From NCBI GenBank assembly GCA_905620495.1, contig CAJQTK010000032.1, positions 1-64,000 of the forward strand: a DNA stretch of 64,000 nucleotides. Direction: 5' to 3'. Made by a program: the position numbers and the translations under genes. The notes under the pieces were generated by a model, which saw only the letters and a list, made by a program, of their open reading frames with translations, did not search any database and was not told where the DNA came from. This document shows, piece by piece, positions 6,194-36,601 of this stretch. This DNA is from an uncultured Candidatus Pelagibacter sp. (GTDB lineage Bacteria; Pseudomonadota; Alphaproteobacteria; Pelagibacterales; Pelagibacteraceae). The first letter of the stretch is position 1. Every line of letters starts with the position of its first letter.

Positions 6194-6201
6194 TGCTTTT
6201 T

Positions 6202-6792
6202 TTATAGCGATCCCTTTGTAGAAGGAACTACACCCTTATTTCTTGGATCTATTTCTAAAGCTGTTCTCAATGACCTTGCTAGGGCTTTAAAGCAAGACTC
6301 AATTATGTGATGACTATTGTCTCCATAAATATTTTCCATATGCAGCGTTATTCCTGCTGATTGAGAAAATGCTTGAAACCATTCTTTAAAAAGTTCTGTA
6401 TCCATCTCTCCAAGTCTTTCTACTTTTAATTTAACTTTCCATATTAAGTAAGGTCTATTTGAAACATCAATTGCAACCCTTGTTAATGTTTCATCCATTG
6501 GAATCATTGCGTGAGCATACCTTCTAATTCCTGCAAAATTTTTTAAAGCTTTCTTTAAAGCCTCACCTATTGCTATTCCAGTATCTTCTGTTGTGTGGTG
6601 AAGATCTATATGAGTGTCACCTTTTGCTTTAACTTTTAAATCAATAAGTGAATGTTTTGATAGTTGCTCAAGCATGTGATCTAAGAAACCTATTCCAGTA
6701 TCAATTTTATAATGACCTTTACCGTCAATATTAACTTCAACACTGATACTGGTTTCTTTAGTTTTTCTGGAAACTTTACCTATTCTGCTCAT
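6202..6792 (-). CDS. hisB: Imidazoleglycerol-phosphate dehydratase
   Basis: [22 protein letters not shown] motifs. Confidence 0.98.
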
Positions 6793-6848
6793 AATATTAA
6801 ATACCTATATATTGATTAATAAACTTTATCAATATCTGCAATCCACTA

Positions 6849-6876
6849 CTTGAAGAATAAAAATTAATATCCATCT
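6849..6876 (+). promoter_or_regulatory. Candidate heat-shock (sigma32-like) promoter for hslVU
   Basis: CTTGAA (6849-6854), 14-nt spacer, ATCCATCT (6869-6876) against CTTGAA-N14-CCCCATnT. Confidence 0.55.
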
Positions 6877-6883
6877 ATAATCC

Positions 6884-7399
6884 ATGACTACAATAGTGCT
6901 TATTAGAAAAAATAATGAAGTAGTAGTAGCTGGGGATGGCCAAGTTAGTATGGGCAATACAGTTATAAAAAGTACTGCTGCAAAAGTTAGAAAAATTGAA
7001 AAAAGAAATGTGATTGCTGGATTTGCTGGATCTACTGCAGATGCTTTAACTCTATTTGAAAGGCTTGAGGCAAAACTTGAAAAACACGCTGGGAATCTTC
7101 CTAGAGCAGCTGTTGAGTTAGCAAAGGATTGGCGGACTGATAAATATTTAAGAAGATTAGAAGCTTTAATGGCTGTTGGTGATAAAGAAAATAGTTTTAT
7201 AATTTCCGGTACAGGTGATGTTTTAGAACCTGAAGGTGATGCCATAGGTATAGGCTCTGGTGGAAATTATGCCTTAGCTGCTGCTAAAGTTTTATTAGAT
7301 ACAGATTTAAGTGCAGAAGAGGTGGCAAGAAAAGCTATTAAAGTTGCATCTGAAATTTGTGTATTCACTAATGATAATATTAAAATTGAAAAAATTTAA
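6884..7399 (+). CDS. hslV: HslV peptidase subunit
   Basis: [29 protein letters not shown]. Confidence 0.97.
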
Positions 7400-8766
7400 T
7401 GAAAGATTCAAACGTTACACCTTTTCCAAAAGAAAAAAATGAAAACAAGGATAGCTCTTTGGTTAGTTCCTTGTCACCTAGAGAAATAGTTTCCGAACTA
7501 GATAGATATGTGGTTGGGCAAAATAAAGCTAAAAAGGCAGTTGCTATTGCTTTAAGAAATAGATGGAGAAGACAGGCTTTAAAAGGTGAAATGAAAGATG
7601 AAGTTTTACCTAAAAATATCTTAATGATCGGACCAACAGGAGTTGGTAAAACAGAAATTTCTAGAAGACTATCCAAATTAGCAGAAGCACCTTTCGTAAA
7701 AGTAGAGGCAACAAGATTTACAGAGGTTGGATATGTTGGGAGAGATGTTGAACAAATTATAAGAGATCTACTTGAAATTGCAATTGCAATGGAAAAGGTA
7801 AAGAAAAGAAAAGAAGTTCATGCAAAGGCCCAAAAATTAGCAGAAGAAAAAGTTTTGGATGCCGTGGTTGGAAATAAAGCAAGTCTTGCTACAAGAGAAA
7901 GTTTTAGAAAAAGATTAAGAGATGGTGATTTAGACGATAATGAAATTGAAATCGTAGTAAATTACAGTGGTTCTCAAGCTTCCTTTGAAATTCCTGGAAT
8001 GCCTGGTGCTAACATTGGGATGATAAATATTGGTGAGATGATTGGAAAATCTGTTGGAAATAAACAGAAGAAGAAAAAAATGACCGTCAAAGAATCTCAT
8101 GAAATTTTAATTAATGATGAAGCTGATAAATTAATAGAAGAAGATAAAATTATAAAATCAGCAAAAGACTCTACAGAAAATAATGGAATAGTTTTTTTGG
8201 ATGAAATAGATAAAATTTCAGGAAGAACTGACAGATCTGGAGGAGATGTTTCTAGAGAAGGAGTACAAAGAGATCTACTTCCTCTAATTGAAGGAACAAC
8301 TGTGAGCACAAAGTACGGTACAATTAAAACCGATCATATTTTATTTATTGCATCTGGCGCATTCCAACTAGCAAAACCTTCGGACCTACTACCAGAATTA
8401 CAAGGTAGATTACCAATAAGAGTTGAGCTTGAGGCATTGACTAGTGATGATTTTAAAAGAATTCTTAAGGAGCCAGATTATAGTTTAATCAAACAGTATG
8501 TAGCTCTCTTAAAAACTGAAAATGTAGAATTAGAATTTTCAGAAGATGGAATAGATGCTATCGCAACTATGGCTTCAGAAGTTAACAATACTGTAGAAAA
8601 TATTGGCGCCAGAAGATTGCACACTATTATCGAAAGAATATTAGATGATATTAGTTTTACTGCAACAGATAGGGCTGGTGAAAAAATTATAATAGATTCT
8701 AAATATGTAAAACAAAATCTAGATGAACTTGTTAAAGATACAGATTTATCTAAATTTATTCTTTAA
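7399..8766 (+). CDS. hslU: HslU ATPase subunit
   Basis: [34 protein letters not shown] Walker A. Confidence 0.98.
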
Positions 8767-8796
8767 AATTACAAATATTTCAATTCTTTCATTTCT
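8763..8796. repeat. Copy 1 of a 34-nt near-identical direct repeat at the 3' ends of the tandem sulfotransferase genes
   Basis: ttaaaattacaaatatttcaattctttcatttct; 33/34 match to 9629-9662. Confidence 0.85.
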
Positions 8797-9629
8797 CTTT
8801 TGAGAGAAACTTCTAATTTTACTTTTATCTTATGTGGCAGAGACTCTGGAGTATTAACTTTAGGACCATATTTAAAAAAAGTGATTTTTTTATTATTTTG
8901 AATATTTACTGACTCTTCAAAGCCTTTGTTTTTTTCTAAATTTTGCATATATTCAAAAGTTGTTGTATCTAAAATATTTTTTAATTTTTTGTCATCAATT
9001 GAAAATTTTGATTTTGATAATTTCTGTACAAATTTAAGAATAGACAAAAAGACTTTTTCTTTATCATTTATTATGTCTTCATATTTTATAAGAAGGTAGC
9101 GATCAAATTTCTTAAATTCTTTCCAAGATTCATAATTTAATGCCCAAGAATTCATATGAGTTATTATTTTATCTACTTCATTAGTTGAATTTTTAATCCC
9201 CCCCAATGTTGCTCCATATTCTAACATTCTATTTGATGCCCTCTCTAACGTCATTTGATTATGATTAGCATATGATTTCACAACACTTCTTGGGTCACGA
9301 ACCATATATATTACACCTAAAGAATTCTTTAAATTAGTAAATTGATGACCATTAATATCTGAAAGACCACTATGAGTTTTAATAAATCTTACTGAATTTT
9401 TATCAATTTTGTTAATTTTGTTTTGTACATTGATATAATTTTTAACAATTTCTGTCTGATCAGAAGTATTAACCCCATAATTTTCAAAAAGTTTTAAATC
9501 TGGAAATTGATTTATTTTTTTAATAATATCAAAATTGAATTTTCCATCCACAGTAAAAAAATATGCTGAAAGCATTGATCTTACCAGCGTATTTCCACTT
9601 TTAGGATAGGATGCTAACCAAATAATCAT
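8769..9629 (-). CDS. PAPS-type sulfotransferase
   Basis: 5'-PSB loop YPKSGNTLVRS, 3'-PB motif VRDPRSVVKSY. Confidence 0.85.
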   Translation of the reverse strand: MIIWLASYPKSGNTLVRSMLSAYFFTVDGKFNFDIIKKINQFPDLKLFENYGVNTSDQTEIVKNYINVQNKINKIDKNSVRFIKTHSGLSDINGHQFTNLKNSLGVIYMVRDPRSVVKSYANHNQMTLERASNRMLEYGATLGGIKNSTNEVDKIITHMNSWALNYESWKEFKKFDRYLLIKYEDIINDKEKVFLSILKFVQKLSKSKFSIDDKKLKNILDTTTFEYMQNLEKNKGFEESVNIQNNKKITFFKYGPKVNTPESLPHKIKVKLEVSLKREMKELKYL

Positions 9630-9662
9630 TAAAATTACAAATATTCCAATTCTTTCATTTCT
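9629..9662. repeat. Copy 2 of the 34-nt direct repeat
   Basis: ttaaaattacaaatattccaattctttcatttct. Confidence 0.85.
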
Positions 9663-10489
9663 TTTTTAAAAGCTTTTTCTATTTTTTTTATTACCTCTAA
9701 GTCTAATAATTTTTTCCAATCATTTTTTGGTCCTAAATTAAAAAATGGTATTTTTTCTTTTGTTTCTATATTAATTCGCGCCTCTTCAAATCCCTTTTCT
9801 TTTTCTAAATTCTTCATATTTTCAAAACTAGTGGATTGAATAACATTTTTCACTTTGGTCTCATCAATTTCAAAATTAATATTTTTAAGTTTATAAATAA
9901 ATTTCAAAATTTTTTTTAAACTTTCCTCTTTATTAAAAATTAAATCTTCGTATTTAATTAGTAAATATTTTCCCTGCGACTTAAAAGATTTCCAGCTATT
10001 AAAGTTGCCATTCCAAGTACCAGAATAAACTATACTTTTATCAGGTAAATTACTGCCGAGTGGGTTCCCACCGAGTTGTGTTGTGTGGATTAAATGATCT
10101 GCAGCATCCATTGGTGATATATTTAAGAAATTTGCTGCTGAAGTGACAACATTTCTAGGATCTCTTACAACATAAATTGCTCCAAGAGAGTTATCTAGAT
10201 TGGTAAAATTATTACCCTCAATATTAAAAAGATAGCTATGTGTTTTTAAAAATTGAACCTCATTTTTTTTATTAATAGATTCCTGGACTTTAATATAATT
10301 TTTAATTACTTCTTTTTCATTTTTTATATTTACACCAAGCCGTTCAAACAAAGATGCATGGGGAAACTGTTTTATATTTTTTATTAAATCAAAATTAAAA
10401 ATTCCATCTTTAGAAAAAAAGTATGAAGCTAACAGCGATCTAACTAGGGTGTTTCCACTTTTTGGATATGAGGCTAACCAAACAAACAT
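9635..10489 (-). CDS. PAPS-type sulfotransferase, tandem paralogue
   Basis: YPKSGNTLVRSLLASYFFSKDG, VRDPRNVVTSAANF; strong similarity to the adjacent gene. Confidence 0.85.
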   Translation of the reverse strand: MFVWLASYPKSGNTLVRSLLASYFFSKDGIFNFDLIKNIKQFPHASLFERLGVNIKNEKEVIKNYIKVQESINKKNEVQFLKTHSYLFNIEGNNFTNLDNSLGAIYVVRDPRNVVTSAANFLNISPMDAADHLIHTTQLGGNPLGSNLPDKSIVYSGTWNGNFNSWKSFKSQGKYLLIKYEDLIFNKEESLKKILKFIYKLKNINFEIDETKVKNVIQSTSFENMKNLEKEKGFEEARINIETKEKIPFFNLGPKNDWKKLLDLEVIKKIEKAFKKEMKELEYL

Positions 10490-10534
10490 AAAAAAAATAT
10501 TATTTATCTAGATATATAGTTTTTTTTTTTTAAA

Positions 10535-11053
10535 TCACTTTATTTTAAGCTTATTTTTAAGAAAAATATAAAAAGCTCCACTTCCACCATCTTCTATTTT
10601 AGCATCGTTAGTTTCAATAATAAGCTGTGTAAGGCTTTTATTGTTTTCAATAAACTCAGGAACTGAATATTTTAGTATACTCAAATCTTTTGAAAGGTAG
10701 GGATTTTCAATATTACTGGATCTTAGTCCTTTGCCTGTAATCACAATTATTTTAGTAACACTTTCCTCAAAACATTTTTGAATAAATTGTTCTACAGCCT
10801 TATTTGCTTCTTCAATAGTGTAACCATGAAGATCTATTTTCTTTATCTTCTCATATCTTATATTTTTTTTATGAACGAAATCTTTATTGGGAATTTTCTG
10901 TTTATTATTTAAAAAGTTTTCCCAGTCCTGCTTATCTTTGTCTAGATTTTTTATATCTTTTTTTTTTATAGAATTTTTATTAAGATTTTTTTTTTTGTTA
11001 TTTAGAAAGTTTTCCCAATCTTCTTTATCTTTTTCTGTTATCTTCTTAATCAA
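10535..11053 (-). CDS. Smr-domain protein with duplicated N-terminal motif
   Basis: KIDLHGYTIEEA ... IIVITGKGLRSS (Smr); DK(E/Q)DWENFLNNK occurs twice. Confidence 0.88.
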   Translation of the reverse strand: MIKKITEKDKEDWENFLNNKKKNLNKNSIKKKDIKNLDKDKQDWENFLNNKQKIPNKDFVHKKNIRYEKIKKIDLHGYTIEEANKAVEQFIQKCFEESVTKIIVITGKGLRSSNIENPYLSKDLSILKYSVPEFIENNKSLTQLIIETNDAKIEDGGSGAFYIFLKNKLKIK

Positions 11054-11647
11054 TTAAGTAATAGTATCAATTAATAGCCAATTTGGATTTGATGATTTAA
11101 TATCTTTTGAAAAAACCCAAGTATCATAAACTGTTTTTATTTTCTCACCATCACCAGACACAATCTTTTTATCTTTATCCTTTATGCAGGTTATGATTTC
11201 ACTAACAAAATCTACTGTAACTTCTAAACTGTCTTCAATTTTTTTATGAGTTTTAATTATAGCTGACTTAATCCCTATAAAAGTTATTTCAGCAAAATGA
11301 CCTTTATTGGCTCTATCTTCAAGAGCTTCTTTGAACTGATCATAAATTTTTTTACCTAAAAGCGGTTTGCTTGCTATCAGCTTGTTATCACTATCACTAA
11401 AATCTGTAATAATTGTTTCATAAGCAATTTTTGCACCTTTTAAAAATTCTTTTTGTGACACTTCATCAAAATTTTCACTAACTGGTTTTGGCTCTATATT
11501 TGTTTTTTGAAATGCCTTTTCAAATTGTGGTGGAATTTTTCCTTCGAAACCAGTTTTTTTACCAAGTATTCCTCTTAAACGAAGGAAAATAAAACCAGCA
11601 ATCATTGCTAAAAGAATAATATCTATGTATTCAAAACTATAACTCAT
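11054..11647 (-). CDS. Tim44/TimA-like domain membrane protein
   Basis: N-terminal TM segment and Tim44-like C-terminal domain; sits next to fxsA-secB as in alphaproteobacteria. Confidence 0.82.
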   Translation of the reverse strand: MSYSFEYIDIILLAMIAGFIFLRLRGILGKKTGFEGKIPPQFEKAFQKTNIEPKPVSENFDEVSQKEFLKGAKIAYETIITDFSDSDNKLIASKPLLGKKIYDQFKEALEDRANKGHFAEITFIGIKSAIIKTHKKIEDSLEVTVDFVSEIITCIKDKDKKIVSGDGEKIKTVYDTWVFSKDIKSSNPNWLLIDTIT

Positions 11648-11705
11648 GATTTAATAATATTAACTATGTTGATTAATTACAACTAGCAATTTAGACTAAG
11701 GACAA

Positions 11706-12128
11706 ATGAACACATTTTTATTATTGCTAGTTGGTATTCCTATTATTGAGATTTATTTTTTTATCAAGCTAGGTTCTCAAATTGGCGCCTTTAATACGAT
11801 TTTACTTATCTTTATTACCGCTTTTTTTGGTATTATTTATGCCAGATATGAAGGTTTTAACACTCTAAAGTCAGGAATGTCTCAAATGGTAAAAAATGAG
11901 CTTCCAGTTTATGAGATTATTTCAGGTGCAGCTTTAGCATTTGCAGCATTACTTTTGATTTTACCAGGTTTTGCTACAGACTTCTTGGGTTTATTAATAA
12001 TATTTCCACCAACAAGAAAATTGATATTTAAAAAAGTATCAATTAAAAAAAAACCTATAAATAAAAAACAAGATTTTATTAATGGTGAATTTGAAGATAT
12101 AGAGGATGAAAATGACAGAAAATTATAA
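11706..12128 (+). CDS. fxsA: FxsA family membrane protein
   Basis: IPIIEIYFFIKLGSQIGAFNTILLI, LLILPGFATDFLGLL. Confidence 0.9.
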   Translation: MNTFLLLLVGIPIIEIYFFIKLGSQIGAFNTILLIFITAFFGIIYARYEGFNTLKSGMSQMVKNELPVYEIISGAALAFAALLLILPGFATDFLGLLIIFPPTRKLIFKKVSIKKKPINKKQDFINGEFEDIEDENDRKL

Positions 12129-12534
12129 AATTATTGGAAGTTTTATTAAAGATATGTCTAGTGAAACACCTGACTCTCAAACATACATATTTGTAAGAGA
12201 TAAAATTTCTAAATACAAATTAAATATTGATATTAATTCAAAGGCAGTGAAAAAAGGAATTATTGAAGTCAACACAATCATAAGATTTTCGGACCAACCT
12301 GAAATTTTAAAAAAAGCACATTTTGAAATAACTTACACATCTATAGTTAAGGTGAATGAAAAAGTTTCTGATAAAAAAGAAATGGAAAAAATTATTTTAT
12401 GTGATGTGCCTAATAAAATTTATCCTGACTTAGAGAAAATATTTTTAAATTTATTAACCGACTCTGGTTATCCTGGAATAAAATTTGAAAAAAAAATTGA
12501 TTTTACTGAATTGTACAAACAAAGAGCTAATTAA
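12106..12534 (+). CDS. secB: Protein-export chaperone SecB
   Basis: SFIKDMSSETPDS, C-terminal DSGYPGIKFEKKIDFTELY. Confidence 0.88.
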   Translation: MKMTENYKIIGSFIKDMSSETPDSQTYIFVRDKISKYKLNIDINSKAVKKGIIEVNTIIRFSDQPEILKKAHFEITYTSIVKVNEKVSDKKEMEKIILCDVPNKIYPDLEKIFLNLLTDSGYPGIKFEKKIDFTELYKQRAN

Positions 12535-13199
12535 AAAAAATTTTTCTTTAAATTATTTTTTAAATATTCTTTATGAAGTTTAAGTTCTACTTCTGATGGT
12601 TTAACTATTTTTTTATAATACTGATTTGTATCATTTGAGTTTATTATTATTTTTTCATTATCTTCATTTTTGAAATTTAAAGTTGGTTCCTTTTGATCAA
12701 GAAGATTAATATAAACTTTAGCTAACAGCTCACAGTCAATAAGAGCAGTATGTTGTGTTCTTTTTGAGTTATCTACTCTGTATCTTTTACACAATGCATC
12801 AAGACTTATTGGAGAGCCTGGAAATTTATCCCTGGCTAAAGCAAGTGTGTCTACAACATTTTCACTGTTTAATTTTTTCTTACCTAATAATGCTAATTCG
12901 TTGTTTAAGTGGGATAAATCAAATTCAGCGTTGTGTATTACAAGTCTCTTATTTTCTATGAAGCCCAAAAACTCATCCACTATTTCTCCAAACTTTTTGT
13001 GGGTAGATAAAAATTCATCTGTATAACCATGAACTTCTAGGGCTTTTTCAGAAACTTTTCTTTCAGGATTAAGATAGCAGTGAAATCTATTTTTGGTTGG
13101 TATCAAATTTTCTAACTCGATACATCCAATTTCTACAATTCTATGTCCATCTCTAACGGATAGTCCTGTTGTTTCAGTATCTAGTATTACTTCTTTCAT
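12531..13199 (-). CDS. dnaQ: DNA polymerase III epsilon subunit
   Basis: VILDTETTGLSVRDGHRIVEIGCIEL, HNAEFDLSHLN. Confidence 0.97.
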   Translation of the reverse strand: MKEVILDTETTGLSVRDGHRIVEIGCIELENLIPTKNRFHCYLNPERKVSEKALEVHGYTDEFLSTHKKFGEIVDEFLGFIENKRLVIHNAEFDLSHLNNELALLGKKKLNSENVVDTLALARDKFPGSPISLDALCKRYRVDNSKRTQHTALIDCELLAKVYINLLDQKEPTLNFKNEDNEKIIINSNDTNQYYKKIVKPSEVELKLHKEYLKNNLKKNFF

Positions 13200-13771
13200 T
13201 TTATATAATTTTTTTTTAGAATCTTTTTTACACTTATCTTAACAAATTTATTAGTAAAATTATTTTTAATAATATAATTAGATTTTTTCTTTTTATAACT
13301 AAGCGGTAACTGTATTTTTTTAAATTGATTATATAAATTTAAATTAAAATTATCTCTTTTTTTTAGTCTTTTTATAATCTCACTTTTTTTTGATTGAACA
13401 AAAACTATTATATCGCTTTTCTGGTTTAGTTTATTTTCTAATAAAAGAGGGATGTCTAAAATTATGGCTTTTCTTTTTTTGTTTTTTTTTAAAAAAGTAG
13501 ATAATTTTTTTCTGACTTCTGGATGAATAATTTTAGTAATTTTTTTTAAATTTTTTTCACTATCCTCTATTGCTTTTATAATTTGTATTTTATTTGCTGG
13601 AAATACTGAAAAATATTTAGGTAAATTTTTTTTTATTTTTTTAAAACAATTTTTATTTTTTTTATATATGCTTGCCACCTCTTGATCAGCATTAAAAACT
13701 GGGTAACCAAAGAGTTTAGCGATATAACTTTTTCCAGAACCAATATCTCCTACCACTGCAATTTTAATCAT
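13196..13771 (-). CDS. coaE: Dephospho-CoA kinase
   Basis: GDIGSGKSYIAKLF P-loop, VFNADQEVASIY. Confidence 0.93.
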   Translation of the reverse strand: MIKIAVVGDIGSGKSYIAKLFGYPVFNADQEVASIYKKNKNCFKKIKKNLPKYFSVFPANKIQIIKAIEDSEKNLKKITKIIHPEVRKKLSTFLKKNKKRKAIILDIPLLLENKLNQKSDIIVFVQSKKSEIIKRLKKRDNFNLNLYNQFKKIQLPLSYKKKKSNYIIKNNFTNKFVKISVKKILKKNYIK

Positions 13772-14565
13772 ACATCTAAAAGATTAATTGTTTCATTGTC
13801 CACTTCTGGAACAACTTTATGCCAGATAAAAAAAGCTTTTTGAGCCTGATAAATAAACATCATTTTACCATTTTCTGTTATTCCACCATACTTTTTTGCA
13901 TTTTTTAAAAAGTTTGTTTCTGGTGGATTATAAATTACATCATAAAAAAATTTATCTTTGCTTATTTGTTGATAATTAATATTAATTTCATCTTCTTCTT
14001 TTAATCCAATGCTTGTTGCGTTTATGATTATATCAAAATCTAAAGTTTTTCCCCATTTAATTATTTCAATTTCTGGAAAGTTTTTCTTTAGTTCTATTGC
14101 TTTTAATTCTGTTCGATTGCTTAAATAAATTTTTTCAATTTGCATTTTTTTAAGCGCAATAATAATTGAAGGAACAACCCCACCTGCCCCAAGTATTAGA
14201 GCTTTTTTATTTTTAGTTTCTTGTTCTGTTTTTTCTAAACTAAGTTTAAAACCTTCAATATCAGTGTTATCGCCTATAATTTTATTATCCTTTTTATAGA
14301 TTGTGTTCACTGATTGAGAAATTTTTGCTTCTCCACTTAATTCATCTAAAAAAGGTATAACCGTTTTTTTAAATGGTACCGTTACATTTATTCCATGAAG
14401 TTTTTCTTCTCTAATATTAAAAATTAGATCTTTTATCTCATTATTATTTAAAAGCTTTTTTTCATAAACTGCATCAATTTTATATTTTTTGATCCAATAA
14501 TTATGTAGCTTTGGGGATAGAGAGTGTTCTATTGGATTTCCTATAACTAAAAATTTTTTATTCAT
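13768..14565 (-). CDS. aroE: Shikimate dehydrogenase
   Basis: VIGNPIEHSLSPKLHN, GINVTVPFK, GAGGVVPSI. Confidence 0.97.
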   Translation of the reverse strand: MNKKFLVIGNPIEHSLSPKLHNYWIKKYKIDAVYEKKLLNNNEIKDLIFNIREEKLHGINVTVPFKKTVIPFLDELSGEAKISQSVNTIYKKDNKIIGDNTDIEGFKLSLEKTEQETKNKKALILGAGGVVPSIIIALKKMQIEKIYLSNRTELKAIELKKNFPEIEIIKWGKTLDFDIIINATSIGLKEEDEININYQQISKDKFFYDVIYNPPETNFLKNAKKYGGITENGKMMFIYQAQKAFFIWHKVVPEVDNETINLLDV

Positions 14566-15149
14566 TCTAATCTATTTAAATATTCTTTTATTTGTTTAAC
14601 TGGGAGCCCCATAATAGTGTCTTCGTCTCCTTCAATTTTAGAGAACAAATTTCTCCCCTCTCCTTCAATTTGATAAACATTATAGGCGTAAAGTGCTCCA
14701 TCTGAGATTTTTCTTAAATAAACTTCAAGCTCTAAAAAGCTCATATTTTTCATGGTTAATGATGCTTTATCTGTATAATTCCATATCATCGATCCTCCTC
14801 TAGAAATACAAACAGAACTAACCAGTTGATGGGTTTTTCCATTTAATTTTTTGAGTATTTTAAGAGCTTCAATTCTATTGTTTGGTTTTGATATTATCTC
14901 TCCCCCTAGGTCTATCGCGCTATCTGCACCTATAACTACCTCGTTAATAAATTTTTGACTTATTTTATTTGCTTTTAACTCAGCTAAATTTTTAGATATA
15001 ATTGTTGGTGTTGCCCTTTCTTTTAATAAACTTTCTTTGATACTATCTTCATCCACATTTGATGGTTCAACTCTACACGTGATTTTATTATCTTCTAAAA
15101 TTTTTTTTCTTACACCACTTTTTGAGGCAAGTATTATTTCACTAACCAT
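14562..15149 (-). CDS. Maf-like nucleotide pyrophosphatase
   Basis: ILASKSGVRKKILE, VIGADSAIDLGGEIISKP. Confidence 0.95.
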   Translation of the reverse strand: MVSEIILASKSGVRKKILEDNKITCRVEPSNVDEDSIKESLLKERATPTIISKNLAELKANKISQKFINEVVIGADSAIDLGGEIISKPNNRIEALKILKKLNGKTHQLVSSVCISRGGSMIWNYTDKASLTMKNMSFLELEVYLRKISDGALYAYNVYQIEGEGRNLFSKIEGDEDTIMGLPVKQIKEYLNRLE

Positions 15150-15966
15150 TATTTTTATATATTTCGTGTATTTTAATTATTGATGCAGCTGTTTCTTCAA
15201 CTGATTTTCTTGTAACATCAATTGTTGGCCATTTATATTTGGCGAAGGTTCTTTTTGCATCCTTAACTTCTTTTTTAATATTTTGAATATCAGTATAACT
15301 AGTATTTTTTTGTTCTTTGAGGGTCATCATTCTATTTTTTCTTATATCAACCAATCTCTCTGCCTCCGCTGTTAGTCCAACAACGCATGCCATTTTAGGA
15401 TTTTTTTTTAAGCTTTCGGGTATTGAGCGCTCATTAACCAGTGGAATGTTTGATGTTTTAAAACCTTTGTTTGCTAAATAAATTGAGGTTGGTGTTTTAC
15501 TTGTTCTGCTAACACCCAGCAATATTAAATCTGACTTGTCTAATTCTTCAACTAAATTTCCATCGTCGTGATTCATTGTAAATTGAATAGCCTCGATTCT
15601 TTCATAATATTCCTCGTTAAGTGCATGTTGTCCACTTGGAACGTGTGATGCTTTTTGGTTTAAGAGCTTAGAAAAATTAAGTATTAAGTTTCCCAAAACA
15701 CTAAAGCAAGGAATTTTTTTTTCGTCACTTTTATTAGCTAAAAATTTTGCAAGATTATTATCAACTATCGTATATAAAATTATTACATTTTCTTTTTGTT
15801 TCGCTTCAGCTAATATTTTAACAACTTGATTTTCGGTTCGCGTAAAAAAATATGATTTAACATCGTATTCAATATTTTTAAACTGAGCTTTAATTGCTAA
15901 AAAAACTCTATCTAAAGTTTCACCCGTAGAGTCAGAAATAAGGTATATTTGATATGTACTACTCAT
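15142..15966 (-). CDS. Pyruvate phosphate dikinase regulatory protein (DUF299 kinase/pyrophosphorylase)
   Basis: IYLISDSTGETL, LGVSRTSKTPTSIYLA. Confidence 0.96.
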   Translation of the reverse strand: MSSTYQIYLISDSTGETLDRVFLAIKAQFKNIEYDVKSYFFTRTENQVVKILAEAKQKENVIILYTIVDNNLAKFLANKSDEKKIPCFSVLGNLILNFSKLLNQKASHVPSGQHALNEEYYERIEAIQFTMNHDDGNLVEELDKSDLILLGVSRTSKTPTSIYLANKGFKTSNIPLVNERSIPESLKKNPKMACVVGLTAEAERLVDIRKNRMMTLKEQKNTSYTDIQNIKKEVKDAKRTFAKYKWPTIDVTRKSVEETAASIIKIHEIYKNNG

Positions 15967-27226: not shown

Positions 27227-29761
27227 TTATATTATAATATTTATTAGTCTATTTGATACAAAAATTGTCTTCACTATTTTTTGTTTTTTTATTAATTCTT
27301 CAGTATCTTTGTTTTCTTGAATTTCTTTTAACAAGTCTTCTTCACTAATATTGTTTTTTACTTTTAATAAAGCTCTTTTTTTTCCATTGATTTGAATAAC
27401 AAAATTAATACTTTCTTCAATTAGCTCACCCTTCAAAATCACTGGCCATTGTATTGGATTTTTATTAATTTTGGTTAAGCATTCGTTCGCAAAGTGAGGA
27501 ATAAAAGGGATCATTGCTATAAGAATTTTTTTGTAATTTTCTACCAGGATCTCAGTTTTCATTGGTTTTTCAATCTCTTTAATCAAAAAATTATACATTT
27601 CATGCAAGTTTGCAATGATCACATTGTAATGAAACTTTTCCAAGTTTTGAGTAATTTTATAAATTAATTGATTTGTGAATTTTGATAATGTTTCATTTGT
27701 AAAGCTTGATTTATCAGTTTCAATTTTTTCTAAAATTTTAGAATTAAGCAACCATAATTTTTGTAAAAATTTATATGAAGCGACCATGCCCTGATCAGAC
27801 CACTGAACGTCTTTTTCTGGAGGACTGTCTGATAAAATAAAAAGTCTTACTGAATCTGCACCATAATTATTTATAATATTTTCAGGGTCGACTGCATTTT
27901 TTTTTGACTTAGACATAGATTCTATTGGTCCAACTGTAATTTTCTCTGTGGTGTCAATCTTTTTAAAATAATTTTCCCCATCATTCGTTGAAATTTCTTC
28001 GGGACTTAACCACTTGTTATCTTTATCTTTATATGTTTCGTGACAAACCATGCCTTGAGTAAACAGCCCATCAAAAGGTTCTTTCAATTTAAATTTTTCA
28101 TTTTGGAATGATAGAGCTTGCATGAAAAACCTTGAATACAATAGGTGTAAAATTGCATGCTCAACACCACCTATGTACTGATCAACAGGCATCCAATAAT
28201 CAATTTCTTCTTGCGTAAATCCACGATCTAAATTATGAGGTGAACAAAACCTTAAAAAATACCAAGAAGAATCAACAAAAGTATCCAATGTATCAGTTTC
28301 TCTTCTATATTTTTTGCCATCCAAGTTAAAGAATTTCCAGCTATCTTCCGAGTCTAATGGGTTTCCTGTGTTGCTTAATTTTTCAATTTCTGGAAGCTTA
28401 ACAGGCAACATATCTCTTGGAATTTTAATAGGCTGATCATTTTCATCATAGGCCATTGGAATGGGACAACCCCAATATCTTTGTCTTGATATCCCCCAAT
28501 CTTTTAATCGATAATTAGTTTTTTTTGTCCCTAAATTATTCTTTTCAAGTAATTCTATTGTTTTAATAATAGATTCGCTTGGAACTTTTAAACCATCAAG
28601 AAAATTTGAATTATAAAGATATCCTTCACCCGTATAAGCCTCATTATTTATTTCAAAATCTTTATCTTTTTCAGGCTTAACAACAGGTGTAATTTTTAAA
28701 TTATATTTTTTTGCAAAATCTAAATCTCTTTGATCATGTGCAGGACAACCAAAAACAGCACCTAAACCATAATCCATTAATACAAAGTTTGCAAAATAAA
28801 CTGGAACCTTCATATTTTTATCTAATGGATTGATCGCAACTAGATCTGTTTTAAAACCAAGTTTTTCTGCAGAAGCAATGGATTCTTCAGTAGTACCTGT
28901 TTTAGAACATTCTTCTGTAAATTTTTGAAATTCTTTATCTTCCTCATAATATTTTGCTAAAGGGTGATCAACTGAGAGAGCAAGAAAGGAAAAACCAAAT
29001 AAAGTGTCAGGTCTTGTTGTATAACACTTAATACTTTCAATAGGTTTTTCACTTTCAATTTTAAACTCAACTTCACAACCAAACGATTTACCTATCCAGT
29101 TCTTTTGCATTATCTTTACTTTGTTGGGCCAATTTTCTAATGCATCTAATCCCTGCAGTAAGTCTTCTGAGAATTTTGAGATGTTAAAAAACCATTGATT
29201 TAACTTCTTTCTTTCAACTGTGGCTCCTGACCTCCAACCTTTACCATCTACTACCTGTTCATTAGCAAGAACAGTTTCGTCAACAGGATCCCAATTAACA
29301 TAATTCTCTTTTCTGTAAACTAATCCTTTGTCATATAGGTCTAAAAAAAAATTTTGTTGGTGTTTATAATAATCCTCAGAACAAGTTGAAATTTCTTTGT
29401 CCCAATCAATTGATAACCCAAGTTTTTTGAGTTGAGATCTCATGGTTTTAATATTAGATTCAGTCCAAGTTTTAGGATCTAAATTATTTTGTCTTGCCGC
29501 ATTTTCTGCTGGCATACCAAACGAGTCCCAGCCCATTGGATGAAGAACATTGTAGCCTTGCAATGTTTTATAACGTGCTAGCACATCTCCGATTGTATAA
29601 TTTCTTACATGACCCATATGAATTTTCCCAGATGGGTATGGAAACATTTCAAGGCAATAAAATTTTTTCTTATTTTTATCAACTTTAGTTGAAAATACTT
29701 TTTTTTCTTCCCAAAGTTTTTGCCACTTTTCTTCTGTTATTTTAAAATTATATCTATCCAC
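27227..29761 (-). CDS. leuS: Leucyl-tRNA synthetase
   Basis: [23 protein letters not shown]. Confidence 0.99.
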
Positions 29762-30570: not shown

Positions 30571-31530
30571 ATGAACATTAAAAAAATAGGTTTGACTGCT
30601 TTAGCAGCTTCTCTTGTTTCTGTATCAGCTCACGCTGGTGAAATGACTGTTGCGGGTTCAGCATCAGCTACACTTAAAAACAACTCAGGTACTGTTGGTG
30701 GAAAATCAATCACTATGGGTAACCAGTTAACTTTCACAGGTGGTGGAGAATTAGATAATGGTCTAAACGTAGCTTTATCTTTCGTAATTGATCAAGGTGA
30801 TGGTGTAACAGCTGCAACAGCTCCGTTTGACACTCACTCACTTACTATAAGTTCAGATGCTATGGGATCTTTAGTTATTGCTGGTGAAGGTACAGGAAAT
30901 GCTCAATCAGCTTTAGATACTACTGCTGCTGGCGACATTTGGAATAACGGCTTTTCAAATGCAGGCACTTCATATACTTCAATGAATGGATCAGATGCAG
31001 CTAACAACAAATCAATAAACTACACTTTTCCAACTATAATGGATGATCTTGCTTTATCAGCATCATACAGTGGACAAACTACTGCTGTAACATCTACTAC
31101 GGCTATTGGAGCTACGTATACTGGTATTGAAGGTTTATCAGTAAGTTTCGGTGCTGGTCAAGATGGTTCAACATCAAGTACTGCATCAGGTGATATAACA
31201 ACTATGAAAGGTTCTTACGCATTAGGATCATTCACAGTTGCTGCCTCACAAACTGAGTCTGATTTAGATTCAACTGGTATAGATGAAGAAATGACTTCTT
31301 GGAATGTATCTTACACAGTAACTGATGATTTATCAATTAAGTACGGTGAAGAAAGTCACGAAACTGCTGCTCAAGCAACGGACGAAGAGTTTGAAGGAGT
31401 TACTATAACTTACACAACTGGTGGTATGACAATTACAGCAGCTCAATACGAGGCTTCTGGACTTAACAATACTGCAGGTGCTACAGGTGATGCTGAAAGA
31501 TGGAAATTAGGTCTTGCATTTGCATTCTAA
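30571..31530 (+). CDS. Porin-like outer-membrane beta-barrel protein
   Basis: Signal peptide ending SAHA, Gly/Ser/Thr-rich alternating strands, C-terminal aromatic GLAFAF. Confidence 0.88.
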   Translation: MNIKKIGLTALAASLVSVSAHAGEMTVAGSASATLKNNSGTVGGKSITMGNQLTFTGGGELDNGLNVALSFVIDQGDGVTAATAPFDTHSLTISSDAMGSLVIAGEGTGNAQSALDTTAAGDIWNNGFSNAGTSYTSMNGSDAANNKSINYTFPTIMDDLALSASYSGQTTAVTSTTAIGATYTGIEGLSVSFGAGQDGSTSSTASGDITTMKGSYALGSFTVAASQTESDLDSTGIDEEMTSWNVSYTVTDDLSIKYGEESHETAAQATDEEFEGVTITYTTGGMTITAAQYEASGLNNTAGATGDAERWKLGLAFAF

Positions 31531-31555
31531 TTAAATCTAATTAAAAATATTAAAG

Positions 31556-31581
31556 GGCCCCTTTTTAGGGGCCTTTTTTTT
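31556..31581 (+). terminator. Intrinsic terminator of the porin gene
   Basis: GGCCCC-TTTTTA-GGGGCC followed by T8. Confidence 0.93.
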
Positions 31582-31627
31582 AAGTAAGTCAGTTAAAATT
31601 ATTAGCAATTATCCTTCAATTAATAAA

Positions 31628-33256
31628 ATGAATAAAATAATTTTAAATGCAAATTATCTAGTTATTAATGCTTTAACAGCAATTAAAAACAAAAATTATA
31701 TAGAAGCTAAAAATTTATTAGAAAAAGCCATATCAATACAACCTGAAATGTTTGCGGCTAATCATAATTTAGCAATACTTAATTTTCAATTAGGAAATTT
31801 AGATAGTTCCATTTTATATTTTGAAAAATCAAAAAAAATAAAACCCAAATTCTCTCAAGTTTATTTTAATTTAGGTTTAGCTTATGATAGAAAAAAAAAT
31901 ATAAATTTAGCAATTATTAATTTTAAAAAAGTAATAAAGCTGGACCCAAATAACCCAAATAATTCAATAGCACTCTATAATATTGGTCATCTTTATAAAA
32001 AAAAATTTGAAACAATTAAAGCTGAGGAATATCTTAGTAAATCCCTAGATTTAAATCCAAATCTTATAATATCATATGATGAGTTATTCAGTTTATATGA
32101 TCGATCTAACCAAATAGAAAAATTTAGTAATCTTCTAGATAAAGCAAAAAAAATATTGAGTGAAAAAGATTTAGTAAGCTTTTATGAAGCAGTTTTCACA
32201 TATAATCAAAAAAATTTTAAACAAACAATTCAAATTTTAGAAAATATAGATTTAAAAGAAAATTATGTTGGTCAAAACATAACTAAGCATTCACTTTTAG
32301 CAAAAAGTTATGATCAAACAAATAATTTTGAAAAAGCTTACAATCATTTTAAAATTAATAATCAATTAATTAATGAATCTTATGGTAAAGGTGTTAATGA
32401 GAAAAGCTTTATAGAACTAGTAACACAAAGAATAAAATTTTTTAAAAATTTTAATTTCAATAGATGGAAGCAGCATCAGCTAAAAGATGAATTTTTTCAG
32501 CCCATTTTTCTGATTGGTTTTCCAAGATCGGGCACAACTCTTTTAGATACAATTTTAAGAACAAACAAATCAATTGAGGTCATAGAAGAAAAACCTGTTT
32601 TGAGAAATTTTTTAAGAAATTTAGATATAAAGATAAAAAATAATTTTAATCATCTTGATAACTTAGACAAAAAATTTATCCAAAATATGCAAAATTTTTA
32701 TTTTGAAGAAAGAGAGCAATATCTTGAAAATAAAAAAACTAAAATTGTAATTGATAAAATGCCACTAAATATAATTTATATTGCAGAAATTTTACGATTT
32801 TTTCCTAATGCAAAATTTATTTTTGCATTACGTAATCCTTATGACTCAGTTCTGAGCTGTTTTATGCAGCAGTTTGAATTAAATCCTGCAATGAAAAACT
32901 TCACATCTTTGGAAAGTTCTGTAATTTTATATGATTTAGTTATGAAATTATGGACAATTTACAGAGATGTATTTTCAATAAATTGTCATTTCATTAAGTA
33001 CGAAGATCTCGTTACAGATTTTGAAAAAACGACCAAAGAAATTTTTAAATTTTTGGAAATAGATTGGTCTGATAACACAAAGAATTTTTATATGACTGCA
33101 AAAAAAAGACTAAATATTTCAACACCAAGCTATAATCAGATAACTTCTCCATTATACTCAAGATCTATTGGTCGGTGGAAAAATTATGAAAAAGAATTTA
33201 AAGGTTTAAAAAATATTTTAGATCCATGGTTAGATGAATTTAATTATAAGATCTAG
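31628..33256 (+). CDS. TPR-repeat protein with C-terminal sulfotransferase domain
   Basis: Multiple TPRs, then GFPRSGTTLLDTIL and LRNPYDSVLSCFMQQF. Confidence 0.92.
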   Translation: MNKIILNANYLVINALTAIKNKNYIEAKNLLEKAISIQPEMFAANHNLAILNFQLGNLDSSILYFEKSKKIKPKFSQVYFNLGLAYDRKKNINLAIINFKKVIKLDPNNPNNSIALYNIGHLYKKKFETIKAEEYLSKSLDLNPNLIISYDELFSLYDRSNQIEKFSNLLDKAKKILSEKDLVSFYEAVFTYNQKNFKQTIQILENIDLKENYVGQNITKHSLLAKSYDQTNNFEKAYNHFKINNQLINESYGKGVNEKSFIELVTQRIKFFKNFNFNRWKQHQLKDEFFQPIFLIGFPRSGTTLLDTILRTNKSIEVIEEKPVLRNFLRNLDIKIKNNFNHLDNLDKKFIQNMQNFYFEEREQYLENKKTKIVIDKMPLNIIYIAEILRFFPNAKFIFALRNPYDSVLSCFMQQFELNPAMKNFTSLESSVILYDLVMKLWTIYRDVFSINCHFIKYEDLVTDFEKTTKEIFKFLEIDWSDNTKNFYMTAKKRLNISTPSYNQITSPLYSRSIGRWKNYEKEFKGLKNILDPWLDEFNYKI

Positions 33257-33282
33257 TTTTAAATAATTTTAAGACTTATCGC

Positions 33283-33310
33283 TTGCTTTAATAAACTTGC
33301 TAACTATAAT
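33283..33310 (+). promoter_or_regulatory. Promoter of the tRNA-Gly-like gene
   Basis: TTGCTT (33283-33288), 16-nt spacer, TATAAT (33305-33310). Confidence 0.7.
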
Positions 33311-33325
33311 ATCCACACAACATAA

Positions 33326-33399
33326 GCGGGCATAGCTCAGTGGTAGAGCGTCTCGTTGCCAACGAGAAGGTCGAGGGTTCGACCCCCTTTTTAGGGGTC
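33326..33399 (+). tRNA. tRNA-Gly(GCC)-like gene whose 3' acceptor strand is replaced by a terminator hairpin
   Basis: 5' acceptor GCGGGCA, D arm GCTC/GAGC, anticodon arm TCTCG-TTGCCAA-CGAGA, T arm GAGGG-TTCGACC-CCCTT; next 7 nt are TTTAGGG instead of TGCCCGC. Confidence 0.85.
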
Positions 33400-33407
33400 T
33401 TTTTTTT
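33381..33407 (+). terminator. Intrinsic terminator overlapping the T arm of the tRNA-like gene and the 3' end of the thiE-like CDS
   Basis: GACCCC-CTTTTTA-GGGGTC followed by T8. Confidence 0.9.
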
Positions 33408-33933
33408 GTTCAAAAAAAGAAATACCAGCAAAACCATGGCAGTTAGTAAGAGCTAGTTTTTTTAAATTGTTAACTGATATTCCGCCAAGAGCTATGAAAG
33501 GCTTACCACTTAAAAGAGAAAGAGATTTAAATTTATTGATACCTAAATAATTTTTATTTCTTTTAAAGATTGAAGATAAAAAAATAGCATTAACACTCTG
33601 CAATTCTTTGGTCCTCATTTCATAAACATTATGAGCTGAACCCAATATAATAAATTTTTTTTTAACTGAATAAGCAAGGTGTTTTTTATTTTTATTAAAT
33701 GAAGGAATATAAGCACCGTCTAAATTAAGTTTTATAGCTAATTTTATATTATTAGAAATTAAAAACTTATTACCTTTTTTCTTACAATAGTTTTTTATTG
33801 TTAAAATTAATTTTTCATCAATGTCTTGAGCATAATTTCTAAATATTATGATTGTTTTTTTATCCTGTTTATCTATGTGACTTTGGTCAAATTTTTTTAT
33901 AAAGTAATATCTATTCAAAGTTTTATTATGCAT
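33391..33933 (-). CDS. Thiamine phosphate synthase/TenI-like protein
   Basis: LNLDGAYIPS, ILGSAHNVYEM, KPFIALGGISVNNL. Confidence 0.78.
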   Translation of the reverse strand: MHNKTLNRYYFIKKFDQSHIDKQDKKTIIIFRNYAQDIDEKLILTIKNYCKKKGNKFLISNNIKLAIKLNLDGAYIPSFNKNKKHLAYSVKKKFIILGSAHNVYEMRTKELQSVNAIFLSSIFKRNKNYLGINKFKSLSLLSGKPFIALGGISVNNLKKLALTNCHGFAGISFFEQKKDP

Positions 33934-34578
33934 AACACTATTAAAAATTTAATTTATATAGAAGAGCTTATCAAATCAAAAGCAAATCATGATGAATTAG
34001 CTAAAATTATAGCGGTATCGAAAACTTTTCCTATTGAAAACGTTTTACCCCTAATAGAGCATGGACACTTGCATTATGGAGAAAATAAGGTTCAGGAGGC
34101 TTTAGAAAAGTGGACTGATATAAAAAATGAAAATCATAGTATTCAACTTCACTTAATTGGAAGACTTCAAACTAATAAAGTAAAAGTAGCTTTAAGAGTA
34201 TTTGATTATATTCATTCATTGGATAGTGAAAATTTAGCCAATAAAATTGCTGATGAACAACAAAAACAAGGAAAAAAACCCAAGATATTTATTCAAGTTA
34301 ATATCGGTAATGAAGATCAAAAATCTGGAATAAATAAAGAAAGATTAGGCGATTTTTATAAATTTTGTAAAAATTTGAATTTAGATATCATTGGCACGAT
34401 GTGCATTCCACCAAATGACAACAATACTGAAAAATATTTTTTTGAGATGAGTGAAATAAATCAAAAATTAAATTTTAAAGAATTAAGCATGGGTATGTCA
34501 GGAGATTATCTAGAGGCAATTGAAAATAATGCAACATACATCAGAGTAGGTTCAAAAATATTTGGTAGCAGAACCTAA
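33928..34578 (+). CDS. YggS-family PLP homeostasis protein
   Basis: IIAVSKTFPIENV, HYGENKVQEAL, LSMGMSGDYLEAIENNATYIRVGSKIFG; start moved to ATG 33928. Confidence 0.95.
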   Translation: MHNTIKNLIYIEELIKSKANHDELAKIIAVSKTFPIENVLPLIEHGHLHYGENKVQEALEKWTDIKNENHSIQLHLIGRLQTNKVKVALRVFDYIHSLDSENLANKIADEQQKQGKKPKIFIQVNIGNEDQKSGINKERLGDFYKFCKNLNLDIIGTMCIPPNDNNTEKYFFEMSEINQKLNFKELSMGMSGDYLEAIENNATYIRVGSKIFGSRT

Positions 34579-35063
34579 CCAATTTTGATTTTAGTTTTTT
34601 TATCTATTAATTTTAATAATATTTCAAAATCTTTCTTTTTTAAAGCAACACATCCTGCGGTTGGTTTATAATTATCTGTTAAATGAATAAATACTGCGCT
34701 CCCTTTGCCTGGAGTTTTTTTTTCATTGTGACTAATTGAAATTATATAATCATACTTATGATCTTTTCTGTGTAGATTTTCTTTAAGATTTTTATTACTC
34801 GTTTTAATTTCTTCATTATATTTTTTATGCTTTGGATCATCACACCAGGCCATATCTTGTTTAATGATCTTTTTATTGATTTTGCAGTTTGGAATACCAA
34901 CACGATCTTTTCTAAAATATAATTTTCTTAAACTAAATAACCCTTTGGGAGTTGAATAATCACCCTCCTTTTTATTAGAATTTATGCCACCTTTTGCAAT
35001 ACAACATCTCAATTTAAAGTCGTCAATTATAAGAGTGTTTTTATTTGGTACATGAATTATCAT
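34575..35063 (-). CDS. L,D-transpeptidase (YkuD) family protein
   Basis: YDYIISISHNEK, SAVFIHLTDNYKPTAGCVALKK active-site Cys motif. Confidence 0.9.
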   Translation of the reverse strand: MIIHVPNKNTLIIDDFKLRCCIAKGGINSNKKEGDYSTPKGLFSLRKLYFRKDRVGIPNCKINKKIIKQDMAWCDDPKHKKYNEEIKTSNKNLKENLHRKDHKYDYIISISHNEKKTPGKGSAVFIHLTDNYKPTAGCVALKKKDFEILLKLIDKKTKIKIG

Positions 35064-35083
35064 AAGTAATATTAAATATAATT

Positions 35084-35665
35084 ATGCAAAATGTTTTTAT
35101 TATAAATTTTAATTCACTATATGAAATTTTAGATGAGATAAAAGAAAATTTATCTTTTAAAATTATAAAAATTGAGAATGAAGAAGATTTAAAAAAGAAA
35201 CTTGATCTAGATAGATTAGATTATTTGGTAATTTCAAAAACTGATCATAAATTATTACTAAATAACAATATAACTGATAAAAATTTTTTAGATTTTAATG
35301 ATTTGCCCTTATCTTTTAAAAAATTATTAGAACTAATCAATATTAAATTAATCAAATTAAAATTTAACCAACAGTCTAAGATTATTATTAAAGGTTATGA
35401 ATTAAACTTAAATTCTAAATTTTTTTCTAAAGGTAATTTAAAGTTAAAGTTAACAGAAAAAGAAATTGAAATTATTTTGTATTTAAATGATAAAAAAATT
35501 AAACACGATGTTGCAGATTTACAAAAAAATATATGGAATTACTCAACAGACATGGAGACCCATACTGTAGAAACACATATTTATAGATTACGAAAAAAAA
35601 TAAGTAATTTATTTAAAGATGAAAAATTTATATTAAGCCATAAAAATGGCTATTTTATTGACTAA
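35084..35665 (+). CDS. OmpR-type winged-helix regulator with degenerate receiver domain
   Basis: C-terminal LTEKEIEIILYL ... HTVETHIYRLRKKI; N-terminus lacks recognisable phospho-acceptor pattern. Confidence 0.82.
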   Translation: MQNVFIINFNSLYEILDEIKENLSFKIIKIENEEDLKKKLDLDRLDYLVISKTDHKLLLNNNITDKNFLDFNDLPLSFKKLLELINIKLIKLKFNQQSKIIIKGYELNLNSKFFSKGNLKLKLTEKEIEIILYLNDKKIKHDVADLQKNIWNYSTDMETHTVETHIYRLRKKISNLFKDEKFILSHKNGYFID

Positions 35666-35671
35666 AATAGC

Positions 35672-36601
35672 TTAATCTAGTCTAGCACCAACTTTTTGGA
35701 TTATCTTTGAAGACATTTCGGTTCCTTTTTCGAGACATTCTTTTGTTGAAATATTATTAATTAACCCATGAAGAAAACCGGCTGCAAAGAGGTCTCCAGC
35801 ACCTGTTAAGTCTACAATTTTTAAATTGGGTTTACTTTGACATTCTACAATTTCTTGATTTTTAATAGCAATGCTTCCTTTTTCCCCACGTGTGATAATT
35901 AAAAGTTTTCCTAATCGTTTTCCAAATTCAATAACATCTTCAAAGCTTTTAGCATCAATTAATGATCTAATTTCTTGTTCGTTAGCAAAAGTAATATCAA
36001 GTTTATTTTTAATTAAATCTAAAAAATCATTTTTATGTCTCTCCACACAAAATTGATCTGATAAGGACATTGCTTTAGTAGTAGAGAAAGACATTGCTTT
36101 ATTAAAGGCAGATTGTGGTTCTCCCTCATCCCATAAATATCCTTCTAAGAATATCATTTCACTTTCTTTTACAGCTTTTTCGTTAATATCTTTTTCACTA
36201 ATTCTTCCTGCAATCCCTAAAAACGTTACCATTGTTCTTTCTGCATCAGGGGTAATCAAAATTAAACAAGTTCCTGTTGGTGAAACCTCTTGTTTTTTTT
36301 TATAAAAGTACTGTACTTTTTCTTTAATTAGTCCGTCTTCATATTTTTTTCCTAAATCATCAGCATTAACTTTACCAATAAACCCAACATTATTTCCCAA
36401 TTGAGATAGGCCAACAATCGAATTTGCAACAGATCCACCAGATACAGTTTCTTCAATTTTTAGAGTGGATAAGAGTTTTTTGAATTCATCTTCATCTACT
36501 AGCTTCATGGTACTTTTGGTTAACCTATTTTCCACTAAATACTGATCATTTACTTTACATATAACATCAACAATTGCATTCCCAATTCCTAGAATTTTCA
36601 T
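35672..36601 (-). CDS. PfkB-family sugar/adenosine kinase
   Basis: VSGGSVANSIVGLSQLG, VDLTGAGDLFAAGFLHG. Confidence 0.93.
   Translation of the reverse strand: MKILGIGNAIVDVICKVNDQYLVENRLTKSTMKLVDEDEFKKLLSTLKIEETVSGGSVANSIVGLSQLGNNVGFIGKVNADDLGKKYEDGLIKEKVQYFYKKKQEVSPTGTCLILITPDAERTMVTFLGIAGRISEKDINEKAVKESEMIFLEGYLWDEGEPQSAFNKAMSFSTTKAMSLSDQFCVERHKNDFLDLIKNKLDITFANEQEIRSLIDAKSFEDVIEFGKRLGKLLIITRGEKGSIAIKNQEIVECQSKPNLKIVDLTGAGDLFAAGFLHGLINNISTKECLEKGTEMSSKIIQKVGARLD

What the first reader, a model, noticed from the sequence alone, without database searches (positions are those of the whole stretch)
33283..33407. tRNA-Gly(GCC) gene whose 3' acceptor strand is replaced by an intrinsic terminator
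Seen: promoter TTGCTT-N16-TATAAT, then a clean tRNA-Gly body (5' acceptor GCGGGCA, D arm, anticodon loop TTGCCAA, T arm GAGGG/CCCTT). Where TGCCCGC plus discriminator is expected, the sequence reads TTTAGGGGTC-T8. At most 3 of 7 acceptor pairs form, and GACCCC-CTTTTTA-GGGGTC makes a terminator that competes with the T stem. Knowledge: aminoacylation needs an acceptor stem and CCA. Inference: either a recent break in a tRNA, or a retained, transcribed tRNA-like sRNA (for example a GlyRS, EF-Tu or RNase P decoy, or a codon-responsive RNA). The undecayed arms argue for recency or selection.
Basis: partly seen in the sequence, partly recalled or inferred. Interest (0 to 1): 0.78.

Follow-up and report, generated by a model that had tools for sequence, protein, structure and literature searches.

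The report
Broken tRNA-Gly at a recombination junction
In a SAR11 ocean bacterium, a copied piece of DNA carrying most of a glycine tRNA gene was joined to a pre-existing transcription stop signal, leaving a probably transcribed but dead tRNA that is decaying in a sister genome; the cell keeps an intact version elsewhere, so this is an informative but largely ordinary pseudogene.

Summary
At 33326-33390 there is a tRNA-Gly(GCC) body, identical over 65 nt to the normal gene of many Pelagibacter genomes. It has its usual promoter, but the 3' acceptor strand, discriminator and CCA are replaced by TTAGGGGTC-T8. Relatives explain it. In them, porin and the convergent thiE-like gene are adjacent and share one terminator. 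Here a 1.8-kb segment, TPR-sulfotransferase plus truncated tRNA-Gly, sits between the two genes. Its closest sulfotransferase relatives (72% and 62%) lie just upstream of the intact tRNA-Gly(GCC) at the standard locus, which is about 32 kb away in relatives. The breakpoint is in CCCCTTT, shared by the tRNA T-arm/acceptor and the porin/thiE terminator. A second genome, RIS_SAG_13, has the same locus, so it is not a misassembly. Its tRNA body has 8 changes and a broken anticodon stem, while a terminator stem persists. The window's genome has a different, intact tRNA-Gly(GCC) elsewhere, so nothing essential is lost. Best reading: a probably transcribed tRNA pseudogene fused to a terminator by recombination, spread by a short homologous-recombination tract. 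A retained regulatory RNA is not excluded, but only the terminator arm shows any sign of constraint. Expression could not be tested.

The parts
33283..33310 (+). sigma-70-type promoter (TTGCTT-N16-TATAAT) of the tRNA-Gly gene, carried along from the standard locus
   Evidence: the same kind of promoter sits upstream of intact tRNA-Gly(GCC) in relatives
33326..33390 (+). tRNA-Gly(GCC) body, 5' acceptor strand through T-stem 3' strand plus one T; lacks acceptor 3' strand, discriminator and CCA
   Evidence: Rfam RF00005 50.3 bits, model 7-64; 65/65 identical to intact relatives such as L141
33381..33407 (+). intrinsic terminator GACCCC-CTTTTTA-GGGGTC-T8; 5' arm is the tRNA T-loop/T-stem 3' strand, 3' arm and T-run are the old porin/thiE terminator
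33384..33390 (+). breakpoint: 7-nt microhomology CCCCTTT common to the tRNA 3' end and the porin/thiE terminator
   Evidence: three-way comparison
31628..33256 (+). TPR-sulfotransferase (542 aa), arrived with the tRNA; stop codon 69 nt before the tRNA
   Evidence: Pfam Sulfotransfer_3 2.1e-34 plus TPR; closest relatives sit just upstream of intact tRNA-Gly(GCC)
31556..31581 (+). porin terminator GGCCCC-TTTTTA-GGGGCC-T8, left-hand copy of the duplicated terminator
33391..33933 (-). thiE-like (TMP-TENI) gene, convergent; its stop codon lies inside the terminator hairpin
   Evidence: Pfam PF02581 3.5e-18
30571..31530 (+). Porin_4 gene; left neighbour, directly adjacent to thiE in relatives
31500..35700 (.). 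tract of high identity to RIS_SAG_13 (mostly 92-98%, one 250-nt bin at 84%) inside diverged flanks; shared by recent homologous recombination; ends approximate

Best explanation
This is a tRNA pseudogene made by a recombination junction. A segment from the standard tRNA-Gly(GCC) locus of a Pelagibacter (TPR-sulfotransferase, 69-nt spacer with the tRNA promoter, tRNA-Gly body) was placed between the porin and thiE-like genes. The right-hand join fell in CCCCTTT, shared by the tRNA 3' end and the bidirectional porin/thiE terminator. The tRNA therefore lost its acceptor 3' strand and CCA and gained the terminator's right half. The promoter is intact, so an RNA of about 90 nt ending in the U-run is probably made. 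It cannot be a charged tRNA and is probably degraded. The tRNA T-arm now doubles as the left arm of a terminator that stops this promoter from reading antisense into thiE. Shown: origin, junction, presence in two genomes, decay in one, an intact GCC tRNA elsewhere. Inferred: microhomology-mediated joining, transcription, RNA decay, and selection on the terminator. The module later spread between lineages within a tract of about 4 kb.
For: Six relatives have porin and thiE adjacent with one shared terminator and no insert. The closest sulfotransferases (72% AG-914-B14, 62% G278) lie upstream of intact tRNA-Gly(GCC)-pcd, and in others the sulfotransferase ends about 68-100 nt before the intact tRNA, as here. 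The three-way comparison puts the breakpoint in CCCCTTT. RIS_SAG_13 has the same sulfotransferase-tRNA fragment-thiE order. Its tRNA body has 8 of 65 changes, 6 of them GC to AT, with anticodon-stem pairs broken; total divergence does not differ from fourfold sites in four genes of the tract (16/218, Fisher p=0.22). An intact, different tRNA-Gly(GCC) and a tRNA-Gly(TCC) are present. Both genomes carry different right-arm changes that give the terminator -10.7 kcal/mol, whereas the inferred ancestral junction gives -8.0.
Against: The window copy has 0 changes while the sister has 8, although the rest of the tract is balanced (52 vs 37; binomial p 0.0009). The loss may therefore not have been equally neutral in both lineages, although P(0) for the window alone is 0.12-0.30. 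One T-stem pair is compensatory (G-C to A-U), but the same base lies in the terminator arm. The left junction is not resolved, and no expression data exist.
Confidence: 0.82

Rival explanations
1. A retained tRNA-like small RNA: promoter, tRNA-like fold and terminator give a stable RNA that works as a decoy or base-pairing regulator, like the pseudo-tRNA tRNA-Other of Bacillus cereus.
For: Promoter and terminator intact in both genomes; window body identical to the functional consensus; 67/70 nt of the promoter spacer conserved between the genomes. Precedent: PMC3399842.
Against: In RIS_SAG_13 the anticodon stem and loop and the acceptor strand changed freely and the Rfam score fell from 50.3 to 31.8 bits. 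The predicted fold is no longer a cloverleaf. Found in 2 of 399 genomes of the genus.
Confidence: 0.1
2. An artefact: amplification chimera or misassembly joining a tRNA end to a terminator.
For: The genome is fragmentary (47 contigs, 66% complete) and short-homology joins are typical of whole-genome amplification.
Against: The same insertion and junction are in a separately held genome assembly with about 5% divergence. Gene order on both sides matches relatives, so two coincident chimeric joins would be needed.
Confidence: 0.01
3. A site-specific integration scar: an integrase-borne element used tRNA-Gly as its attachment site and left a 5' half here.
For: tRNA-Gly(GCC) is an integration target in this genus: intact tRNA plus integrase plus 3' remnant at G000:C1, and a 41-nt 5' fragment in G010.
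Against: The window segment holds no integrase. The order sulfotransferase-promoter-tRNA is the host's upstream flank of the standard locus, not an element. The breakpoint lies in the T-stem/acceptor and is explained by 7 nt shared with the terminator.
Confidence: 0.06

Closest known systems
Intact tRNA-Gly(GCC) of Pelagibacter at the sulfotransferase / pcd / purH locus
   Same: 65/65 nt identity of the body, same promoter type, same upstream sulfotransferase family and spacing
   Different: No acceptor 3' strand or CCA, no pcd downstream, different chromosomal place
Porin/thiE bidirectional terminator of relatives (GGCCCC-TTTTTA-GGGGCC-T8)
   Same: Right half, T-run and thiE side are homologous
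   Different: Left arm replaced by the tRNA T-arm; stem weaker (-10.7 vs -15.2 kcal/mol); thiE side has lost its own U-rich tail
Pseudo-tRNA tRNA-Other of Bacillus cereus (PMC3399842)
   Same: A non-translating tRNA-like gene associated with acquired DNA
   Different: That one has demonstrated transcripts and deletion effects; nothing of the kind is known here, and the sister copy here decays
tRNA 3'- or 5'-fragments left by integrated elements at tRNA genes
   Same: Partial tRNA beside acquired DNA
   Different: No integrase or att pair at this place; junction is microhomology with a terminator

Membership tests
Functional tRNA (Rfam RF00005) | D, anticodon and T arms with GCC anticodon | tested here: met
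   50.3 bits over model 7-64
Functional tRNA (Rfam RF00005) | 7-bp acceptor stem, discriminator and templated or added CCA | tested here: not met
   3' strand reads TTTAGGGGTC; ARAGORN finds no tRNA
tRNA pseudogene | clear homology to an intact tRNA elsewhere, with a disabling lesion | tested here: met
tRNA pseudogene | relaxed constraint over time | tested here: met
   8/65 changes in RIS_SAG_13, not below the fourfold rate; window copy unchanged. Only two carriers, so limited
Intrinsic terminator | G+C-rich hairpin followed by a U-run | tested here: met
   -10.7 kcal/mol, T8; termination itself not assayed
Regulatory tRNA-like sRNA (tRNA-Other type) | stable transcript and phenotype | not testable with these tools
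   no RNA data available
Regulatory tRNA-like sRNA (tRNA-Other type) | conservation of the tRNA-like fold among carriers | tested here: not met
   anticodon stem broken and fold changed in RIS_SAG_13
Integrase-mediated tRNA insertion | integrase gene and paired att repeats at the site | tested here: not met
   only a sulfotransferase in the insert; the repeated element is a terminator

The most novel reading that the evidence does not exclude
The fusion has made a new small RNA gene, a tRNA-Gly body with a tRNA promoter and an intrinsic terminator, that is kept in the window's lineage for a regulatory effect (for example on GlyRS, RNase P or thiE antisense transcription), and the sister genome is losing it.
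Probability: 0.1. Interest if true: 0.6.

Novelty: new member of a known kind. Interest (0 to 1): 0.3.

Why it matters
It gives a traceable case of how a streamlined marine bacterium acquires a gene through short shared sequences at a terminator. A tRNA T-arm became one arm of a terminator, with the hairpin re-forming differently in two lineages. It also shows that a clean-looking tRNA body with its own promoter and terminator can be a passenger. That is a caution for annotating tRNA-like small RNAs from sequence alone. If the RNA proves stable and useful, it would be a very young tRNA-derived regulator whose parent is known.

Tried and rejected
First idea, an inversion or a 32-kb deletion joining tRNA-Gly to thiE: rejected because gene order across the window matches relatives and only a 1.8-kb insert is extra. 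Phage carriage of the sulfotransferase: no relative in the viral contigs. A second genus scan listed the same genome handles, so it gave more standard-locus sulfotransferases but no further carriers. Codon-responsive or sole-GCC-tRNA scenario: rejected, an intact GCC tRNA exists. Gene conversion from the genome's own tRNA-Gly to explain the undecayed window copy: rejected, the intact gene has a different sequence (GCGGGTC...). One fold began one base late (33327); conclusions do not depend on it. A paper search for a bacterial tRNA/terminator chimera found nothing comparable.

Full report
OBSERVATION. The described sequence is present. TTGCTT (33283-33288), a 16-nt spacer and TATAAT (33305-33310) lie 15 nt before GCGGGCA at 33326. 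A complete D arm, anticodon arm (loop TTGCCAA) and T arm follow to 33389. Rfam places 33332-33390 in RF00005 with 50.3 bits, model positions 7-64 of 71. ARAGORN calls no tRNA in the window. The acceptor 3' strand is absent: relatives read CCCCCTTT|GCCCGCTCCA, the window CCCCCTTT|TTAGGGGTCTTTTTTTT. GACCCC-CTTTTTA-GGGGTC folds at -10.7 kcal/mol.

IS IT THE ONLY GCC tRNA? No. The same genome has an intact but different tRNA-Gly(GCC) at G000:C1:6322-6396 and a tRNA-Gly(TCC). In gene-order terms C1 carries the standard tRNA-Gly locus. There the intact tRNA is followed by a phage integrase gene, a primase-like gene and other small genes, then a 3' tRNA remnant at about C1:15475-15525 and the pcd gene. 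The standard locus is thus occupied by an integrated element that left a full tRNA.

WHERE THE FRAGMENT CAME FROM. Window gene order matches relatives on both sides. In relatives the porin and the convergent thiE-like gene are neighbours, about 14-51 nt apart in six genomes, sharing one terminator GGCCCC-TTTTTA-GGGGCC-T8 or a variant in most. In the window a 1.8-kb segment lies between them: a TPR-sulfotransferase (31628-33256) and the tRNA fragment. In relatives the intact tRNA-Gly(GCC) is about 32-40 kb away. The nearest sulfotransferase relatives outside this locus (72% in AG-914-B14, 62% in G278) lie upstream of the intact tRNA-Gly(GCC), followed by pcd. In several other genomes a relative of 40-47% ends some 70-100 nt before the intact tRNA, close to the spacing here (69 nt). 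So the segment is the left flank plus body of a standard tRNA-Gly locus.

THE JUNCTION. Aligning the intact tRNA, the window and the porin/thiE terminators of G014 and G024 puts the switch within CCCCTTT (33384-33390), common to both parents. To the right, the T-run and the end of thiE follow the porin/thiE parent. The porin keeps its own terminator at 31556-31581, so the terminator sequence is duplicated on the two sides of the insert. G024 has tandem porins each with such a terminator, so local terminator repeats occur there without this insert. The left junction, between 31582 and 31628, could not be traced to a parent.

A SECOND CARRIER. A scan of 399 genomes of the genus for the junction found one more, G374, which is RIS_SAG_13 (CAJQRP010000046.1). 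It has the same sulfotransferase, tRNA fragment and thiE order, so misassembly is excluded. Across about 31.5-35.7 kb the two genomes are mostly 92-98% identical (one 250-nt bin 84%), while the adjoining bins are 55-80% on the left and 82-90% on the right. Fourfold divergence is 6-9% in four genes of the tract against 30-67% outside. yggS, inside the tract, is an exception at 29%. The insert therefore probably spread by a short homologous-recombination tract.

SELECTION OR DECAY. In the tRNA body RIS_SAG_13 has 8 differences in 65 nt, 6 of them GC to AT. They include the acceptor strand, two broken anticodon-stem pairs and the anticodon loop. All lie on the RIS_SAG_13 branch, because the window copy equals the genus consensus. 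The rest of the tract is balanced between branches (52 window, 37 RIS_SAG_13, 78 ambiguous). Zero changes in the window is unremarkable on its own (P 0.12-0.30), while eight in RIS_SAG_13 is more than half the fourfold rate predicts (P 0.003). A GC-rich (60%) dead tRNA in a 29% GC genome is expected to lose GC quickly, which may account for that excess (inference). The imbalance itself (0 vs 8) is not fully explained. The only part that behaves as if kept is the terminator. The inferred first junction, with the relatives' right arm, folds at -8.0 kcal/mol. The window (GGGGTC) and RIS_SAG_13 (GGGGGT) carry different changes, each giving -10.7 kcal/mol. This fits selection to stop the tRNA promoter from reading into thiE, but two sequences cannot prove it.

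MECHANISM. Most likely, promoter-driven transcription gives a short RNA ending at 33400-33407 that cannot be charged for lack of an acceptor stem and CCA (established tRNA biology), and that is degraded. Transcription, degradation and the value of the terminator are inferred. On the thiE strand the hairpin is no longer followed by a U-rich tail, so thiE transcripts may now read on, antisense to the sulfotransferase.

KNOWN CONTEXT. SAR11 hypervariable regions have been linked to flanking tRNA genes and to homologous recombination spreading variants (PMC2217521). A pseudo-tRNA with regulatory effects exists in Bacillus cereus (PMC3399842), so recruitment of such a remnant has precedent. A T4-like phage contig carries an intact tRNA-Gly(GCC) matching the consensus body (L186), so this tRNA also travels on phages.

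VERDICT. Observation confirmed; the broken-tRNA reading supported and explained; the functional sRNA reading unsupported but not excluded. Interest 0.3.

Noticed in passing
L125 (G000:C1) 6322-15530: Standard tRNA-Gly(GCC) locus of this genome holds a 9-kb integrated element: intact tRNA, tyrosine integrase, primase-like DUF5906 protein, trypsin-like protein, and a 3' tRNA remnant before pcd. It looks like a phage satellite or small island.
   Followed up: partly
L161 3105-3147 (G010:C4:64105): A 41-nt 5' fragment of tRNA-Gly(GCC) about 1.7 kb upstream of the intact gene, after a sulfotransferase: another insertion at the same tRNA.
   Followed up: partly
L186 603-677: T4-like phage contig IMGVR_UViG_3300004369_000559 carries an intact tRNA-Gly(GCC) whose body matches the Pelagibacter consensus.
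   Followed up: partly
window 33381-33399, minus strand: After the fusion the thiE-like gene's hairpin is no longer followed by a U-rich tail on its own strand, so thiE may read through antisense to the sulfotransferase.
   Followed up: no
window 30571-31530: Porin is only 51% identical between the two carriers while the genes downstream are 89-95%, so the recombination tract starts at the porin 3' end; G024 has tandem porins here.
   Followed up: partly
window 28200-29700: Part of leuS is 91-95% identical to RIS_SAG_13 between bins of 64-80%, a second mosaic block.
   Followed up: no
L134-L140 and L142 (about 6001-7587; L139 3511-5097), L133 993-2579: In another Pelagibacteraceae clade a 42-44% identical TPR-sulfotransferase sits between yggS and the L,D-transpeptidase-like gene, about 1 kb from the position equivalent to the window's insertion point.
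   Followed up: no
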